Source: Cloeon dipterum (Eukaryota; Arthropoda; Insecta; Ephemeroptera; Baetidae). Taken from it: a DNA stretch of 64,000 nucleotides. The stretch spans positions 14,746,501 through 14,810,500 of the forward strand of contig NC_088787.1 in NCBI RefSeq assembly GCF_949628265.1, in the 5' to 3' direction. A program made the position numbers and the translations under genes. Below the pieces are notes generated by a model, which saw only the letters and a list, made by a program, of their open reading frames with translations, did no database searches and was not told the origin of the DNA. Below, piece after piece: positions 965-29,240 of this stretch (its first letter is position 1; each line of letters starts with the position of its first letter).

Positions 965-3900
965 TTAAAAGAGCATACCCTGTGGCAATACCCTTTGCGC
1001 GACCCAGTAAAGTGTACTGGCGTACCAGTGGACTCCCACTTGCGGCGCTGGCGCCGTTCTTGCGACGCTGCCTGTGATGGACGAAAACAGTGCACGGATC
1101 GCGTGCCCGGCATTGTTGATAAGGCGATAGGGCGCGAAAGCCATGTGCGCCACGGACTGGCTGTTGATGACGGCGTAGCACGAGGCTCCCACTCCGTTCA
1201 CTACCAGGGTGCCCGTTGCGGTGAGGGGCGCGTAGACACCCCGCTGCTTCTTCGACCCCACGAACTCCACCACGTCCGACTCCAGGGTGCCGTCGCCGCT
1301 GGAGTCCAGCCCCAGCAGCTCGTCGCCCTGTTGAACGTTCCCTACAAAAGAAAATGAGTTTAACATAAAAGATTTCGATGGAAATTAAACTGTGTTGTAT
1401 CCCCAAAAGTATCAAATTTCTTATTTCTATCAATTTATCGGAACAGCTTTGTTCAAATTTTAATGGTTTGCTGCATTCTAATTTAAAAAAAAATTATGAC
1501 GGCGTAAATTCCATTAGTATTGCGGCAACTTATGATTTTATGAATTCAATTTTTAGTCAGTAGCCCCTGCTGGGGACAACCTAACAGCTCTGCGGGTGAG
1601 CCATTTGAAAAAGGAGAGATCGGTTTGCTTTTTTTTACTAAATTTTAGTGCGATTTTAATAACAACAAATATTTTGAGTAATTTATAGTTTGTTGTCCGC
1701 CGTCGCGGCATTCTCACCTGCATAAACAGCAAGGGTTTCGTGGGGTCGGCGCACAAGTAGAAGATGAGTGGGAGTGACGGCCAGCCGCCTGCCCCCTTTT
1801 GTGGTGATATCAACAAAATATCGCATCTCCTCGGGGTTCCTGTCCAGCCACAGCAGCACCTCCGAATACTGGGTTTGTCCCGTCTGCGCGTCAACAGTGA
1901 GGATTTTCTGTCCCACTTGAAGCTCTGACAACGGCACTTGACGACCATCAGAGGTTTGCACCGCAGTATTGGCAGTGAAGCAGCCGCCACCCTTGGTGTG
2001 GGATTTTTCTACAACGGCAAAGAAGAATTCTTAGACCCAATTTGAATTATTTTAAATAAAATTAATTTCCATTGTGCAAAGCCATCTTTTCCCTTATTTT
2101 GACAATATTTTTGATAATTTAGAGAAATGGTTTGGACTGTACATACCTGACTTGACTGAGCAGTGGATGTGGGATTTGCTCTCGTAATTGACCCAATCAA
2201 ATCCAGCTTCGACTGCCAATCTGGCGAGCATGCCTAGTCTCGAACGCTCTCTGTCCGATGTAGTTATGTCTACGGCGCGACCTTCGTAGTGAAGGGTGTC
2301 TCTGCTGTTGAAGCCATCTTCTTCCCATCCTTCGGTCACCCTTAGCTTCACGCCCGGCCACTGGTTCATGACCGAAATGGCCAAAGTATTTACTTTCTCG
2401 TTCAGACGCTGTGAACAAAAATGAAAAACGTCAATTAAACACGAAACAAAATCGAGCAGAATCGTTCATTGAATATTCAAGGCAGGAGCGATAAATTCAA
2501 TATCATCAGTTTTATTTTTTATCCCATAGTATTGAAGAGCATCAAGGTTGTCGTGCATGTTTTTGTGTGAGCAGTGACTCTCACTAAATATTTAACCCAG
2601 CACGAAACTATTTGCTTTGTTAAATCCAGCCTATTAACTGCTGGGCGCTGCTGCTGAGAGGATCTCGTCCCTCTGACGTCGGATTTCAGTTGCTGGACGC
2701 GTTATTTTTGTAAAACAATCCTCTAAAAGCGCGAAATTCCTCTCTGAGGTTGTTTCTTGTAAAAGCGGAGAGCCTGTTGGTCATCACTCCTTTCATAAAT
2801 CTTCTCATTTTGTACCTCCAGTATTTCTCAGCGCGGAGGAATTAGTTTGAGCAGGATAATAGGTGTTTATGCATATTGCCGCTAAGTGACATTAAGTTGA
2901 TCGTGTAAAATATATTAAAAGAAGCGAGAGAAGGGGCATCCAGTGTAAAAAAGGGCTCGGCTGCGCGGCGGAACGATAACGAGGCTGGGGGATTAATTTT
3001 GAGTGTTTGAGTGCGCGTCAAATCACGAAATCATCACACCTGTTGATAATCCTGGCGAGGGCATTTATAAATTGGAGCTAATATGCCCGAGAGAGAGAAA
3101 GAGAGAGAGAGATACCTGGCTAGTTGCCTGCTGCCACTCGGCTGCCTCTCAGGTATCTGATCAGGTAAACACGACCGACCAAGGCCCTGAGAGAGGGCAG
3201 GTAGGCAGCCGGGCCTTATCTCACCTAATTAAATCAGACTCGGCATTTGCCAAACGGCATTTTTCACTCGCATTTTTATTATTCACAGACCGAGCCGCCG
3301 CTCTCAGCCGCTGCTGGCCGTGATTTATTTCCACTTTTTCTGTAACCGCCATTCAGACTCCTTTTCATTATCCTTTTTTCTTGTTGCAATCGCGCAGCAC
3401 AGATCGCAAGAGCGCGCTTGCAGGCAAGCCGGCCAGAAAATAATGCTTTTCTTCAAGGCGGCAGAAGGCCGTTCATTAATTTTAGTTGGAATTGCACTTT
3501 AATGCGGCCTCCTCGCTCGTCAACTTATCTTGTTTGCTGAAAAGTACCTCTGTTTAATTTTTTCCGCGTGCTGCATTGCCTTACTTGAAATTGAGCTACT
3601 TGACTTTTTGCGAGCGTACGAAATGGACGCAGAATACAACATTGACAACAATTGTCGTTTTTATATCAACGAAGACTGCAAGGAACACTCTCCTGCAAAA
3701 TTTGTAAATAAGATAACAAAATTATCCCATTCATGCAATTGAAAAATTAACTAGACGCGTAAATATCCTTTATTTAAATTGGAAGCTGTATTTCAGGAGA
3801 CTCTGATCTTGAAAAGTTTTCTGGCACTCAAACTTACATGGGGATTTAAGAGCCAGCTACAAAATGTCATCTGTTTTTACCTCTAAAATTATTTGGGTGT

Positions 3901-12900: not shown

Positions 12901-13857
12901 TTTTTAGCAGAATATGATCCACTCAGATAAGTTTTAGCGGCTGCTTATTTTCGCTCGTCGCTAAAATAGAGGCAATCCTTTTGTATGTGTGCGAAAGGAA
13001 GTGATAAAAAGGCAAATAGCAGGATGGAAATCATATTTGTCGAAGTCTGCGCTGCCTGGCGGCAGCTTTCGTGCGTTCCGTGCTGGCCGGATTTTGATAT
13101 TTTTTGAAGAGCGCGTCTTGTCTCGAGCAATTCAAATATTGACTCTGACCCAGCCAAAAAATATCCAACCCCTGATAAAGAAGAAAACTACGCACACAAC
13201 TCTGTTTACTTTAACGAAGAGCAGCACTCGCCCGCGGTTTTATAATAATTCCCATTTCGTAAAGGCCAAGCCCTCGCGCCGCGTGTTATTCAATTAATAC
13301 GAGACTGTATATCACAGATGCAAACGCTCTCCTTTCTAGTTGATAAGACGCGCGGATCGAGGTTCAATGTCAGACAGTGAGAAGACGATGGCTCTAATTA
13401 AACTAAACTGCATAATATTGTTCTTGTATTTTGCACGTCGGTCTTCCCTGCGTTTCGCACGCAGCCACATTTATTTTAAATCAAATTTTATCGCTGAAGA
13501 ATCGAAAATAGTATTTTTAGTCACAAGAAGTTGCCAAAAAGTTGCGACAAAAATGTAACTTACAGTTGTCATAAGTCGGTCGGCTCCAGTTCCTTCTTCG
13601 TCACGAAATACGATATCGGGATTGTAATTGGGCACTAGTTCGCTGAAACGACTGTCGTTGCGAACTATCCTTCCTTCTGCAAGTCCACTAGCACCAAGGG
13701 TGTTTTCCGCAGCATTGGGAACCTGCTGGTTGAAGACGAGCGGGCTGAGTTTTCGCCCCGTCCTGATTCGCTGGCCGCCTCTGCCGGGTCCGCAGGCCCA
13801 GGATGGGCCGGAGCCCAGCAGAAGCAGCAGCATTACACGAGCAGCACAGGCACTCAT
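965..13857 (-). CDS. hh: Hedgehog morphogen precursor (four coding exons)
   Basis: Secreted, autoprocessed, lipid-modified signalling protein. Coding exons on the minus strand: 13857-13564, 2408-2147, 2008-1718 and 1341-965 (407 aa). Residues 1-21 form a signal peptide ending just before Cys22 of CGPGRG, the palmitoylation site. The signalling domain carries the [10 protein letters not shown] and HIHCSVKS zinc-site segments and AVEAGFDWV. Autocleavage is expected at Gly194-Cys195 of the GCF motif that opens the Hint domain. VTPTH supplies the Hint Thr/His, and [10 protein letters not shown] lies in the cholesterol-transfer region. Splicing is phase 0 after LMTT, then phase 1 twice. The third intron falls inside Hint, so there is one more coding exon than the usual three. 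The protein is somewhat shorter than Drosophila Hh. Start is the first ATG, directly before the hydrophobic leader. Identification is essentially certain. Confidence 0.97.
7950..8130. promoter_or_regulatory. GC-rich YY1/CCAAT module inside hh intron 1
   Basis: A GC-rich island in otherwise AT-rich intron DNA. It holds a perfect 7-bp inverted repeat, GCGGCCATCTTGGCCGC at 8009-8025, whose centre is a YY1-type CCATCTTGG core. A CCAAT box follows at 8046-8050. This combination is typical of a TATA-less promoter or an enhancer. No transcript can be assigned. Confidence 0.4.
11033..11045. repeat. G13 homopolymer run
   Basis: Thirteen consecutive G residues in the first hh intron. It could be a real mononucleotide repeat, and its length is prone to assembly or sequencing error. 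Confidence 0.9.
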
Positions 13858-14077
13858 TCCATCACTGAAGAATACTGTCCGCCCTGGACACTTTGCGCAG
13901 CGGAAACCTGGAGGCGGGGCGTTGGAAGAGGGGAGGCGCTCCGCCTCACCTTTCTTAGCACGTGCCCTGCCGGGATCGACGCTACCTGCTGCACAGGGAG
14001 ATGACTAACATTCTATCTGGCACTATGCACTTTTCTGCTGCTTTGAATCTACTTCCCATATCATCTCCCCCTCAGTA

Positions 14078-17145: not shown

Positions 17146-17713
17146 GAATAGAATAGAATATTTATTAAACGCCAACCGCGTACAACTATTTCCAGCATTT
17201 ATATGAGGCAGCTTTGGTTAAAGTCAAAGGTTTTAAAGGACAATCAAGAATGTGGTACATACTATACAGATCAGCATTACAATAACTACATTTACATTTG
17301 TCGGTAACATCCAGGTGAAAACAAGAATTTGTGCAAATAAGAAAATGATACCCATGAAATGAATATCTGGTTAACATGGAACGATCCTTACAATTCGTTT
17401 TCTTCCAATCGGTATTTAACATTGCGGGAGTATAATAGAATTTTGGATCAATATTTTGCTTTTTAATATTCATATTACTTACAAACTTGACAAAAGTTTC
17501 GGAACAAGTGAGAGAGAATTTTGATTTTAGCTCATTAACGAATAGGTCGGTCTGTACAAGTTCATAAACCAATCTCGAACGCATTCGTTTATCAACGCCC
17601 AGTGCCTTTTTAAAGAATCTAGATTTAGCACTTTCTAATTTATTGAAATCATTTAAATTTAAATTAATTAATTTAAATTTAATTAAAAATGTTTTTTTAT
17701 TGCTAAAAAACAA
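17146..17713 (-). mobile_element. 3' fragment of a non-LTR retrotransposon (copy 1)
   Basis: An open frame on the minus strand (17713-17186, about 175 codons) resembles the C-terminal part of a LINE-type reverse-transcriptase polyprotein. It has FFKKALGVDKRMRSRLVYEL, then DRSMLTRYSFHGYHF, then a Cys/His knuckle CKCSYCNADLYSMYHILDC. The reverse transcriptase and endonuclease are absent, the usual 5' truncation. After the frame a short 3' UTR ends in GCGTTTAATAAAT (complement of 17160-17172), followed by a tandem ATTCT tail. A second copy of the same family lies at 19443-19920. Confidence 0.7.
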
Positions 17714-19442
17714 ATCCTCGCGTTCCCAACATTTTTAGTTACAGTTCTAAATATATTTATCAGGACTAAATCAAACAGCCTCAGTGACATCTTGTTTGCA
17801 TTAAAACTATACTATAATGCATGGAATGCTTTTCTTTCTTCAGTTGTGCTTTCATGCTGTGCAAACCACAAAATGAATTTGTCAGACAATCTACTTTTTG
17901 CATTCCTTATTCGTTTAAGAACAAAACACACTATATATAATGTGCTTAAAAAGGGAAGAGTATAAAGTCAAACGGGGACGTTTTAAAATTGTTTTGAATT
18001 GCACTTGTATGTATTTGGTACAACATAGCTAATAAAATTCTGGGAAATAAGATTCTATTATTAAAAAAGACACAAAAGACATTTTTGCTGTCAAGAGGTA
18101 GGATATAGAGTGAGGATGAGTTGCTGTCAATATTTGGTTGGTGATACATCATTTCCACGCTGACGTGTATACCTCGAGCATGAGGTGTCTACCATTGTTA
18201 GAGACATGCTCAATGAGAAAAATAATATGAACTCACCCTTCCCAATGAGTGCAACTCTCTGCGTTTTGACCTTTCCGCATTCCTGTTCCTTTGAACGTGT
18301 CTCGCTCTTGACACTTCAAAATAATTCCAATGAAATATACTGACAATGAGCCAGAAAGATCGAGTCCATTGTGTCCATTTTTGACCTTCCTGTATGAATG
18401 GGAACGTATCGTATTCACCAAATAAATTGAGTTAGAATTTAAAGGAAATGCTCATTCTCAATTTAATGCACAGTATATATGATTTCAGGATTTTCTTGTG
18501 GTGTTTCTTCCTTGCTTTTTAACCATTTTTAAAAGTGGATTTAAATGAAGGCTGGACTAAAAGCTGCTGCATTTCTTTTTTTTAAATTGCATTGGAGCCG
18601 TCCGGAATCTTCCCTTGCAATCTTAACAGCGCAGACTTGAGGGCGTTGTGGTGGCTGGCTGCGGGGGCGGCTCATTTGCATGGGCGATCTTTATCCTATC
18701 TGACTCAACAATGGCCGTTGGCGCATGTTTATACATTATAAAAAATGAATACGCGCGGCGGCCGACTGGCGCGCATACAAGTAAAAGCGAGTGAATGCGC
18801 GTGGGCCGAAAATAAATATCACAGGTGCTGGATTTTTCATTATCTTTCTCAGCTTCCACGAATCTGGCCGAGTGCGTCATTTTTCAATTCAAAATTCTGT
18901 CATGTGTGTTTCTCTTTACTTAAAAAAGACTTGTGTCGCACATTTATTATTCTTTCACACAGCGGCGCACAGACAAAACAAAGCAGGGCTGCGGCTCCTG
19001 CAGGATGCTGAGAGCGCCAGTCTGCCCTTGCATGCATTTCGAATACAATCGTGATATTTTCATTTTTCCGCATAAACAATAAGCGTCACAAGTTCTCAGA
19101 AATGAAACACTCATAGCCTTTTAATAGTATGCACACAAATCAAAAGTTGGAGATGCTCGTTTCTCACATCAATGTGGAGGATTAGTTTTTTTAGTCTACT
19201 TCGAATGATCCAATCAAAATATAAATTAACGTAAGCTAAGAGCAATATCTCACCTGATTTGGAAAATCGATCTAATTAAAATATTAATATTATTCTAACG
19301 CAATTCTTAAATTTTTCCTCTACAGCTTTTCTTACCAGACGCATATTTCCCATTCATTTAATAATTAAAACAACCTGGTATGCAATTGAAATTATCTGGC
19401 CACATCTAACTAATATAACTTAAAAGAGTTAACACTCGCTAC

Positions 19443-19920
19443 TTTAAAAGAAAGTGCTTGGAATTTCTAATAAGTTCAATTTATCTCGTTACGCGTATGA
19501 CATGATTGCGAAAGACTCCAAGTTCTATGTAACTGACTTGAAAAATAGATTTTACTTACCAGAGACTGCGGTGTATAAAAAGTTGTGTGAATCAAAGAAA
19601 ACAAATAGACTGTTAATTTGTGCCAAATTCTTCGAGACTGAAACTATGATTAATGAGAACTGGCGTGGACCAGATTTTCCTGATCGATTCATTTTTACAA
19701 GATTTGCTTGTCATATGGCTATATCATATGTTTTCTGTAGTAATGCAACGTTTCATTATGAACCTATAACGACCATTGTAGATGTAATTTCTATTGCGAG
19801 ACTTGTGAAAAATATCTTATTCAAAAGTATATTCAGCAAGAAAATTGACTTGTAAAATTGATAAAATATAGATTTAGTGATGTATTGCGTTTAATAAATC
19901 ATTAAATTTTTCATTCAATA
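19443..19920 (+). mobile_element. 3' fragment of the same non-LTR retrotransposon family (copy 2)
   Basis: The plus-strand frame (stop near 19855) aligns by eye with copy 1 at 17.2-17.7 kb: KKVLGISNKFNLSRYAYDMI against KKALGVDKRMRSRLVYELV, and DRFIFTRFACHMAISYVFC against DRSMLTRYSFHGYHFLIC. Beyond that the zinc-knuckle cysteines are lost, so this copy is decayed. It has the same terminal GCGTTTAATAAAT at 19887-19899 as copy 1. Orientation is opposite. A dead, 5'-truncated element. Confidence 0.65.
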
Positions 19921-23700: not shown

Positions 23701-24229
23701 TTTGAAGATTTACCCAGACCTAAAGCGAGAGTATTAGCCAAAAATCATAGTTTTATAAAATTTCATAATTTACATAAGGTATCATCCCGTTGGACAGGAT
23801 AAAAAATTAAATATGTCGCTATTCAGTGATTTTTAATTTTACCCATTCAAAGTTTTTGGTATAACCATGTATATAATATTTGATACGTGTATATTTGATC
23901 AAAAATATTAAATCCTTGCACGCTTCAAGAGAGGAAAAATTAAGAAATCATTTTTCAGAGCATTTCACCTAAATTAAAATTAATCTAAGGTGGGAAAGAT
24001 AAAATAATTTGTAGAATTCAAAAAGAAAATATTTAATCGTTAAAGTTTAACAGTCCAAAAATGAATCAATGATAGTTTAATTTTTACGGTCACGTTCCTC
24101 ATTGCTCACGTTTAACTGTCAGCCAAAGGGAATAAATCAGCGTGAAATAAGCTCAAATCAATTACAATTAAAGCGAACTTGATAAGGACTTAAATCGACA
24201 ACGATTAATTATCTTAAGTGGCAAGGGCG

Positions 24230-24440
24230 CGCGAAATGTGCTCGCAAAGGTGCGAAGCGGAGGCGAGTCCGACGAGAGCGAGGCGCACCTGGCCGGGTCT
24301 CGACGGCACACCGCCCGGCACGCGCGCCTCCTGGGTGGTCGGACCACCCAGCCGGTGTCTTGTGCGCGCTCTGCCGCCTCCACCGACACCCCTGGAAGGC
24401 CTACCCCTAAGATTTCCTCGACTTCTTAGGGCTGGCAAGC
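24230..24440. promoter_or_regulatory. GC-rich patch with palindromic GLI/Ci site pair, upstream of hh
   Basis: A CpG-rich island in AT-rich DNA, about 10.3 kb upstream of the probable hh promoter. At 24332-24350 it contains TGGGTGGTC-G-GACCACCCA: two perfect 9-bp matches to the GLI/Cubitus interruptus consensus GACCACCCA, back to back with one base between. Open frames cross the patch on both strands but none resembles a protein, so a regulatory reading is preferred. That these sites act on hh is inference. Confidence 0.5.
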
Positions 24441-27068: not shown

Positions 27069-29240
27069 TCACTCATCGCAGAGGAGGCGGAAAGTTGTGA
27101 GGCCAGCGGCCACGCAGGCGGTCAGTTCGATCCAGAAGCGGCGCGATGGCGTGGGTCGGGCCGCCATCAGGCAGGCCAGCGGCACCAAGATGTGCAGCAG
27201 GTCGGGCACCATCAGGGCCACGTCCCGCACCACCTGGTGGGCCAGACCACGCGCGGCCAGCACATTCTCCACGAACTGGTCGCGGGCGGCCAGGAAGGCG
27301 TGCACCATGCCAACGGCCACGATTGGCAGCACGCCGCGGCTCGTCACGTTGACTTCGCGGTCGGCCAACCGCAGCACCGCGTAACTCGCGCCAACCTGAC
27401 ACCAAAAATGAGAATATTAGTGATAGAAATTCGGGAGGATAGAGAAGCACAGCTTTACTATGTACATATCAATTCACAATTTGCGGAAGCCCTTTTAGAA
27501 CATTTAATGTACCTATACTATTTCAACAAGTATAAAATAAATTTTGCATAAAATAGAGGAATCAAATAGGTAATTAAACCTAGTGGTCTCAGCCACAAGA
27601 TTTAAGGCGGCGGCTGGCGGGACCGGCTTAGCCAAATTTTTTTCCCGGCGGCGGCTGCCCATTTTTACCAGCGGTTGAAAAAATTATTTAATTGAGGAAA
27701 GATTGAACCGTACCTCTGAGACAGTGAAGTACAGTTGATGATGCCATTGCGTGTAAAAATCGTCGTTCCAATAATTGAGGTAGGACCACCAGCTGTAGTA
27801 ATGCGGGAAGAGAGCGGTTAGGAAAAGTAGGGCCATTGGAAAGCGTAGGCGGCCGTTTACGGCCAGCATGGCCATCCGCTTGATGGCCTCGTATAGGGCC
27901 ACGATGGCCAGAACAGTCAGCATCCATATGAGCAGCACGTTGCGGGTCGCGTTAAAATAAAAATGCTTGTAGGAAGCCACCCCAGTCTCATAGGTGCCCT
28001 GGAAAATCGAAATTGATTAGTTACGTGATAGTGTGATCGAGTTCATGATTAGACGTAATTTTCCAGTGGGAGGTTGGTTGCATCCTGTAGTTTATCAAAG
28101 TTAAGTTTAATTTAAGTTAAGCTTTTTACAGAAAATTTGTGAAAAAATCATTTTTGCCTTTAACTCAAAGAATAATACATATATGTAATTTGGTTCAATA
28201 CATATCAAAGCTAAGAAGTGTGCTCATAATAAGATTCTGGCTCAGCCCATAAAAAACCCAAGAAGTGTGCACATGATGAGAATGTGGCTCAACCCATAAC
28301 AAAAGCATGGATTGTGACACTTTTGATTTTTGTACTAATACAAAAAAAATCATGTAGCTTACATAAATCTTTTACAAGTATCTGCCCTTAAAAAATTGTG
28401 GCAACCGTTTAACCATAAAGGCTATATGGATGCGCCGATAGTATTTCTCTCAGTGTACAAGATAAAATTTATGAAAAAGCCGAAAATGCTTAAAATTTTC
28501 CATAGGCTACCGTTTTAATATTTGATAAAATCGGATCAAAGTTTGCATGCGAATCAAGCTGCGGGTAATGTCTCCTTATTGGAATTTATGATTTATTATA
28601 CCAGAAGGGAAATTTAGCTCAAATTATTATTCTTGCTCTTAGTCAAATACAATAAAATACATTGAATAAAAAGATTTCAGGTAAGAAAGGGCGAACAGTA
28701 ATACTAGCGAAATTCGCACATCATTGGGCAGACCGTGACAGGAGGGATCAAAATCAAGTAAAAAATCATTGACAAACAATTAAATATTTTCGAAAAATCT
28801 GAAATAGTGCCCTTAACCGGTCGATTTTACCCATCGAATTATTACAGGCACGTGAAATAAAAATGCTAAGTGTTTAAAAAGTCTATTGATTAATTCTTTA
28901 AAAGATTCCTTTCTGATAAGAGAACATTTGGGGTGGGTTTCACAGTTGGTGGCTGCGAATGCGTTGTGACTGCGCCAAGCGCAGACGAAGATTAATGAGT
29001 GCACTCCGGAATCGATTTCATCCCTGCCGCTCCAAATCAGGAATCTAACTGCTCCCCCAGAAGAGTATGCTGCCAAACTAGTTTTTGGTTGCCAGCGATG
29101 CTTATCGCGACAAGTGCGGGGCGAGTTGAGCGATTCGGTCGAATACTCACTTTAAAAATAGTATCCCAGCAACTGCAAGTGCACGTGAATTTGTCGACCT
29201 TGCGGGCGTACTTGGACCAGTACTTGGAGAGCACAGCCAT
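27069..29240 (-). CDS. Multi-pass membrane protein of unknown function
   Basis: Three coding exons on the minus strand, 29240-29151, 27998-27714 and 27395-27069, give 233 aa with all junctions in phase 0. The start chosen is the first in-frame ATG (MAVLSKYW) after a strong acceptor at 29306. An unspliced ATG at 29345 would add 35 residues. Hydrophobic segments lie near residues 51-70, 80-97, 144-158, 181-205 and 211-230. Notable is the aromatic stretch FPHYYSWWSYLNYWNDDFY near 91-109. A cluster of three cysteines (CTCSC) sits near 20-24. I do not recognise the family. It is divergent with, and about 0.8 kb from, the Rab gene. Introns hold a MITE fragment and a dispersed repeat. Gene reality is well supported by frame continuity and codon content; function is open. 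Confidence 0.75.
27581..27676. repeat. Truncated hAT-like MITE in an intron
   Basis: It starts TAGTGGTCTCAGCCACAAG, with a hAT-type YARNG terminus, and continues AAGGCGGCGGCTGG and GACCGGCTTAGCC. This matches the end of the intact element at 15792-16068 (reverse orientation). The second terminus is not found. It lies in the last intron of the membrane-protein gene. Confidence 0.55.
28213..28306. repeat. Two-copy diverged 47-bp tandem repeat
   Basis: AAGAAGTGTG-CTCAT begins at 28213, and AAGAAGTGTG-CACAT begins exactly 47 bases later at 28260. Both units continue with a GGCTCA-CCCATAA block at the same offset. The pair lies in the first intron of the membrane-protein gene. Confidence 0.75.
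28470..28806 (+). repeat. Dispersed repeat, copy B
   Basis: Matches the reverse complement of 20541-20780 in ordered blocks. It contains about 88 additional bases (roughly 28621-28709) absent from copy A. No coding potential. It lies in the intron between the first two coding exons of the membrane-protein gene. Confidence 0.7.

What the first reader, a model, noticed from the sequence alone, without database searches (positions are those of the whole stretch)
24332..24350. Back-to-back perfect GLI/Ci sites upstream of hedgehog
TGGGTGGTC, one base, then GACCACCCA: two exact copies of the 9-bp GLI/Cubitus interruptus consensus in palindromic array. Two exact 9-mers in this arrangement are very unlikely by chance. 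They lie in a CpG-rich patch about 10 kb upstream of hh, the gene whose pathway ends in Ci/GLI. I noticed no other exact match in the window. This suggests a feedback element through which Ci activates or represses hh. The target gene is inference; the sites are seen.
Basis: partly seen in the sequence, partly recalled or inferred. Interest (0 to 1): 0.78.

Follow-up and report, generated by a model that had tools for sequence, protein, structure and literature searches.

The report
Twin Ci/GLI sites upstream of hedgehog
Next to the hedgehog gene of a mayfly lie two perfect, mirror-image copies of the DNA word that the Hedgehog pathway's own transcription factor reads, a tight exact pair found nowhere else in its genome assembly, which suggests that the pathway may directly control the gene that starts it.

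Summary
Window 24331-24351 is a perfect 21-bp palindrome with two exact optimal Ci/GLI 9-mers (GACCACCCA), one base apart, in a CpG-rich patch without coding evidence, 10.5 kb upstream of the presumed hedgehog ATG (minus strand). The organism is probably the mayfly Cloeon dipterum. Among 709 exact 9-mers in the 190-Mb genome this is the only exact pair 0-30 bp apart in any orientation; the patch is not a repeat. Exact 9-mers also cluster at classical Hedgehog targets here: four in 5.1 kb upstream of patched, nine in 107 kb at engrailed/invected, and (weakly) three in a Wnt cluster. The genome encodes a Ci whose finger-4 and finger-5 helices match GLI1. So these are probably real Ci sites. That they regulate hh is the best guess, not shown. 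I favour a silencer read by the Ci repressor. Against: only two sites, no weaker helpers within 1 kb, no conservation or chromatin data obtainable here, mixed fly evidence on Ci75 and hh, and a palindrome gives the second site almost free (0.2-0.5 such pairs expected genome-wide under that null; the place next to hh is the improbable part). Published embryonic ATAC-seq of Cloeon could test openness at once.

The parts
24331..24351 (.). Perfect 21-bp palindrome (10-bp arms, 1-bp centre) holding both Ci/GLI sites
   Evidence: unique in genome
24332..24340 (-). Ci/GLI site 1: GACCACCCA read on the minus strand
   Evidence: exact match
24342..24350 (+). Ci/GLI site 2: GACCACCCA on the plus strand
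   Evidence: exact match
24151..24400 (.). CpG-rich patch around the palindrome (60% GC, CpG o/e 1.23); 24190-24440 is single copy; no Pfam match in the six open frames tested
13471..14004 (-). open frame with the hedgehog first coding exon (presumed ATG at 13857; exon limits not refined)
   Evidence: Pfam HH_signal 5.1e-29; ATG letters
2094..2465 (-). open frame with a hedgehog exon, rest of signalling domain (limits not refined)
   Evidence: Pfam HH_signal 2.6e-43
1683..2030 (-). open frame with the hedgehog Hint domain, first part (limits not refined)
   Evidence: Pfam Hint 1.8e-25
965..1384 (-). open frame with the hedgehog Hint domain, second part (limits not refined)
   Evidence: Pfam Hint 1.9e-29
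27069..28016 (-). two open frames (27069-27416, 27684-28016) with the 3' coding exons of the neighbouring gene (uncharacterised protein; alternative target)
   Evidence: 202 of 203 residues as in a Cloeon dipterum protein

Best explanation
The palindrome is a high-affinity Ci/GLI binding element in the upstream regulatory DNA of hh, and it most likely works as a silencer. Ci would bind either 9-mer through zinc fingers 4 and 5 (contact fingers recalled). In cells without Hh signal the processed Ci repressor would sit on it and keep hh off, limiting hh to the Ci-free (Engrailed) cells that make the ligand. Where Hh is received, full-length Ci would relieve the block or, less likely, activate. 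The two site centres are 10 bp apart, about one helical turn, so two Ci molecules would face the same side; whether both fit at once is unknown. Shown: the sites, their uniqueness, their place, a ci gene, and clustering of the same word at other Hh targets. Inferred: binding, target gene, sign.
For: Two exact optimal sites 1 bp apart, the only exact pair 0-30 bp apart among 709 sites in 190 Mb, 10.5 kb from hh. The word is in use in this genome: the patched locus has 5 exact sites in 80 kb, 4 of them in 5.1 kb upstream of the gene, and no other of the 504 permutations of the word reaches that count (next best 4, an overlapping word). Of the first 100 of 709 sites listed, the two densest 50-kb stretches fall at en/inv (7) and patched (5); at 20 kb a Wnt cluster has 3. 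The first 100 sites of the reversed control word show at most 2 in 20 kb and 1 within 50 kb of patched and of the Wnt cluster each. Ci finger-4 and finger-5 helices are identical to GLI1, recalled. Literature passages: GACCACCCA is the optimal Ci site and such sites can repress in embryos (PMC4887206); Ci75 is said to repress hh (PMC4559392; PMC4866710). No Pfam match, not a repeat, not part of a longer inverted repeat.
Against: Only two sites; no other site with up to 2 mismatches (C at positions 4 and 6) within 1 kb, below the 3-per-kb filter of PMC4692483, where only 23% of top clusters worked (80% at known or suspected targets). Density around hh is not significant (P = 0.067). The word is not enriched genome-wide (709 against 885 for its reverse). 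Short inverted repeats exceed shuffles in this genome, so the second site may come free with the first. PMC4559392 itself reports eye-antennal disc results that do not fit Ci75 control of hh. Two Ci proteins 1 bp apart may hinder each other. No conservation or chromatin evidence.
Confidence: 0.48

Rival explanations
1. Same element, opposite sign: full-length Ci activates hh through it (positive feedback or relay) in some tissue.
For: All sequence evidence above applies equally; exact sites upstream of patched, a gene that Ci activates, are the same word (PMC4887206 passages). PMC4559392 reports anterior clones in which raised Ci155 goes with raised hh.
Against: The Drosophila statements seen say that Ci75 represses hh; a tail-to-tail pair is not the arrangement at this genome's patched, whose four upstream sites are spread over 5 kb.
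Confidence: 0.17
2. Ci binds here but regulates another gene, such as the neighbouring uncharacterised-protein gene (27.07 kb to about 29.3 kb, its 5' end matched by eye) or an unannotated transcript from the CpG patch.
For: The patch is 2.7 kb from that gene's last coding exon and 10.5 kb from the hh ATG.
Against: The element is downstream of that gene and upstream of hh; I know of nothing that links that gene to Hh signalling (no search made).
Confidence: 0.1
3. Another GLI-superfamily factor (Opa/ZIC-like or GLIS-like) is the real reader.
For: Finger domains that look like both types are encoded in the genome (L035 and L036; family labels by eye and recalled).
Against: The word is the Ci optimum and clusters at patched and en/inv; ZIC/GLIS sites are recalled to be longer and different.
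Confidence: 0.05
4. Chance: a short palindrome happened to contain the word; no function.
For: 48 of 84,382 comparable 9-mers in 287 kb have their reverse complement within 30 bp downstream; at that rate 0.2 such pairs of this word are expected genome-wide. A second rough estimate, from one other inverted pair among 732 occurrences of permutations of the word in 264 kb, gives 0.5. At gap 3 or less the estimate is 0.004-0.05. The finding was picked after the fact from a whole window.
Against: It must also fall near hh: 30 kb of 190 Mb is 1.6e-4, so the joint chance is about 3e-5 to 8e-5 before allowing for after-the-fact choice of motif and gene.
Confidence: 0.2

Closest known systems
Promoter-proximal Ci enhancer of Drosophila patched (ptc-prox)
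   Same: Exact optimal GACCACCCA sites in non-coding DNA of a Hedgehog-pathway gene (PMC4887206 passages)
   Different: Three sites next to the promoter and required in the wing; here two sites in a 1-bp-spaced palindrome, 10.5 kb upstream, at the ligand gene, untested
Genetic repression of Drosophila hh by Ci75
   Same: Would be the regulatory link that this element carries out (PMC4559392 and PMC4866710 passages)
   Different: No direct Ci site at hh was named in the passages or listings I saw; PMC4559392 also reports results that do not fit Ci75 control
Computed Ci/Gli clusters of Drosophila (inv, rdx, gsb and others)
   Same: Homotypic Ci sites predict Hh-responsive DNA, best at known or suspected Hh targets (PMC4692483 passages)
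   Different: Those need at least three sites in 1 kb; this has two

Membership tests
Ci/GLI-dependent cis-regulatory element | Contains a Ci/GLI binding sequence | tested here: met
   Two exact optimal 9-mers
Ci/GLI-dependent cis-regulatory element | Ci protein with the matching DNA-binding fingers exists in the organism | tested here: met
   C2:11963046-11964248, finger-4 and finger-5 helices identical to GLI1 (recalled query)
Ci/GLI-dependent cis-regulatory element | Bound by Ci and site mutation changes expression | not testable with these tools
   Needs CUT&RUN and reporter assays
Ci/GLI-dependent cis-regulatory element | Open chromatin in embryos | not testable with these tools
   Public Cloeon ATAC-seq exists (PRJNA1084266; PMC11491810 section 25) but could not be read here
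Ci/GLI-dependent cis-regulatory element | Conservation in related mayflies | not testable with these tools
   No insect DNA collection was open to me; only relatives' proteins were reached
Homotypic Ci cluster as filtered in PMC4692483 | At least 3 sites in 1 kb | tested here: not met
   2 sites; none other with up to 2 mismatches and C at positions 4 and 6 within 1 kb, (their matrix was not at hand). Known enhancers of dpp, stripe and hairy have two sites and otd one (same paper)
Dispersed repeat or foldback element | Further copies in the genome, or longer inverted arms | tested here: not met
   Single copy; flanks no more complementary than shuffles (311 of 500 reach the score)
Known structured RNA or tRNA | Match to an Rfam family or a tRNA gene | tested here: not met
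   0 matches in the window at gathering score; 0 tRNA genes

The most novel reading that the evidence does not exclude
Ci directly controls its own ligand gene through a single palindromic double site, a dyad that lets two Ci molecules bind face to face as a strong silencer; the arrangement would be the cis-DNA behind the reported Ci repression of hh and would date direct Ci-hh feedback to early winged insects.
Probability: 0.25. Interest if true: 0.75.

Novelty: new member of a known kind. Interest (0 to 1): 0.52.

Why it matters
Repression of hh by Ci is reported from fly genetics, but the passages and listings I saw name no DNA site that carries it out. A 21-bp candidate in a paleopteran insect makes the question directly testable. 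The side result also matters: the exact Ci word clusters at patched and engrailed/invected (and weakly in a Wnt cluster) in a mayfly, so the optimal Ci code appears to be shared between mayflies and flies.

Tried and rejected
Coding exon: several 60-90-aa open frames cross the patch on both strands, but none of the six tested has a Pfam match at E 0.1. Structured RNA: no Rfam or tRNA match; folding z-scores are -1.8 and -2.8 for the two strands (9 and 1 of 200 shuffles fold as well), which I did not pursue. Repeat: rejected. Longer inverted repeat: rejected. Ecdysone-receptor-like inverted repeat: rejected on spacing, by recalled motif, without a call.

The first inverted-repeat count used a low-complexity filter that hid the palindrome itself; one search is the corrected count (milder filter). 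Its 48 of 84,382 leaves out the palindrome's own two 9-mers (50 with them) and includes a tandem repeat family. The upper gap-3 estimate used 12 nine-mers; a recount gives 11, so 0.046. The list of exact sites showed only the first 100 of 709, all on C1 below 28.4 Mb, so the cluster ranking covers that part only. In it, groups at C1 15.6, 5.4 and 4.9 Mb equal the Wnt group at 50 kb (3 each) and exceed it at 110 kb (4 each); they were not identified. The reversed control list covers C1 below 19.2 Mb, short of en/inv. The patched first coding exon rests on a weak match (26 residues, E 0.028); the next exon is firmer (E 1.7e-7).

Papers: only search listings and passages were seen, plus the outline and one section of PMC11491810. 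PMC12119339, PMC7556880, PMC2744877, PMC11206446 and PMC7119169 gave nothing decisive.

Full report
What is there. Window 24331-24351 reads CTGGGTGGTCGGACCACCCAG, a perfect palindrome with 10-bp arms around one base. It holds two exact copies of GACCACCCA, which PMC4887206 calls the optimal Ci motif (passages). They are the only exact copies in the window and in 184 kb around hh. The patch around them is single-copy, CpG-rich, without Pfam, Rfam or tRNA matches, and its flanks do not extend the palindrome.

Where it is. The window lies on contig C2 of a 190-Mb genome. The neighbouring gene's protein agrees in 202 of 203 residues with a Cloeon dipterum protein. The hh protein's best match is another mayfly, Neocloeon triangulifer, at 71%; no row of the 120 listed is named Cloeon. 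So the organism is probably Cloeon dipterum, or a very close relative. hh is on the minus strand with its presumed ATG at 13857; the palindrome is 10.5 kb upstream, between hh and the 3' end of an uncharacterised-protein gene near 27.07 kb.

How unlikely it is. The genome holds 709 exact 9-mers, fewer than its reverse (885), so the word as such is not enriched. Exact pairs 0-30 bp apart: one tail-to-tail, this one; none head-to-head; none direct. If sites were independent, 0.02 pairs of this orientation would be expected genome-wide. Sites in a palindrome are not independent. In 287 kb, 48 of 84,382 nine-mers of like GC have their reverse complement within 30 bp downstream (50 with the palindrome's own two), which gives 0.2 expected pairs; one other inverted pair among 732 occurrences of permutations of the word gives 0.5; at gap 3 or less the estimate is 0.004-0.05. 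The palindrome alone is therefore only mildly surprising. Its place is not: 30 kb around hh is 1.6e-4 of the genome. The product is about 3e-5 to 8e-5 before allowing for the after-the-fact choice of motif and gene. By density alone hh does not stand out (2 sites within 50 kb, 0.42 expected, P = 0.067).

Does this species use the word? The patched locus was found by Pfam and by a match to solved PTCH1. It holds 5 exact sites in 80 kb, and 4 lie in 5.1 kb upstream of the gene, 0.7-5.8 kb from the likely first coding exon (weak match) and 1.8-6.9 kb from the next, firmer one; 0.02 are expected in such a stretch. Among 504 permutations of the word, none other reaches its count there. In the first 100 of 709 sites that the tool listed, the densest 110-kb stretch (9 sites, C1:21.71-21.82 Mb) turned out to hold engrailed and invected, the next patched. 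A group of three lies among Wnt genes (P = 0.024, weak; other groups of that size were not identified). None of 2,000 uniform placements reached 4 sites in 6 kb or 9 in 110 kb. The first 100 sites of the reversed word reach at most 2 in 6 kb and 4 in 110 kb. So the exact word very probably is a working Ci site in this animal.

How it likely works. Statements in PMC4559392 and PMC4866710 (passages) say that Ci75 represses hh in Drosophila, and PMC4887206 says that optimal Ci sites can repress even in Hh-responding embryonic cells. The simplest reading is a Ci-repressor silencer of hh. PMC4559392 also reports eye-antennal disc results that do not fit Ci75 control of hh. Activation, another target gene, another GLI-type factor, or chance remain open. 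The site centres are 10 bp apart, near one helical turn, so two proteins would lie on one face; simultaneous binding is untested.

What speaks against it. Two sites only, none other with up to two mismatches within 1 kb, against a published filter of three per kb; in that study 23% of top clusters worked overall and 80% at known or suspected targets (PMC4692483 passages). Conservation, openness and binding could not be tested. Embryonic ATAC-seq of Cloeon dipterum is public (PMC11491810) and should be consulted first.

Novelty. Direct Ci control of a pathway gene is a known kind. A Ci site pair at hh itself, in this palindrome, was not seen in my searches (listings and passages of the papers named; most subscription journals are not held).

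Noticed in passing
G000:C1:21712101-21819592 (outside the window): Nine exact Ci 9-mers in 107 kb at the engrailed/invected pair; found as the densest cluster among the 100 listed sites, then identified by Pfam PF10525. Suggests direct Ci input to en/inv in mayflies, as for invected in flies.
   Followed up: partly
G000:C1:16421052-16426165 (outside the window): Four exact Ci 9-mers in 5.1 kb upstream of patched; the patched protein is rather diverged (26-50% to recalled Drosophila Patched by segment).
   Followed up: partly
G000:C1:10865120-10882077 (outside the window): Three exact Ci 9-mers inside a cluster of Wnt genes.
   Followed up: no
G000:C1 near 15.59-15.70, 5.37-5.46 and 4.86-4.92 Mb (outside the window): Four exact Ci 9-mers in 110 kb at each; genes there not identified.
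   Followed up: no
window flank, C2 about 14827937-14828130 and 14836560-14836750 (L027, L028): Two tandem arrays, 8.5 kb apart, of a palindromic unit (AAAAGCGGCC and its reverse complement) at 90-bp spacing.
   Followed up: no
protein hits P0145, P0147: A JGI metagenome contig of 9,113 bp is listed for both, relatives of the neighbouring gene, so it probably comes from another mayfly and could show whether the palindrome is conserved.
   Followed up: no
window 17186-17734 (-) and 19448-19855 (+): Open frames that look by eye like retroelement remnants between hh and the palindrome; no Pfam match.
   Followed up: no
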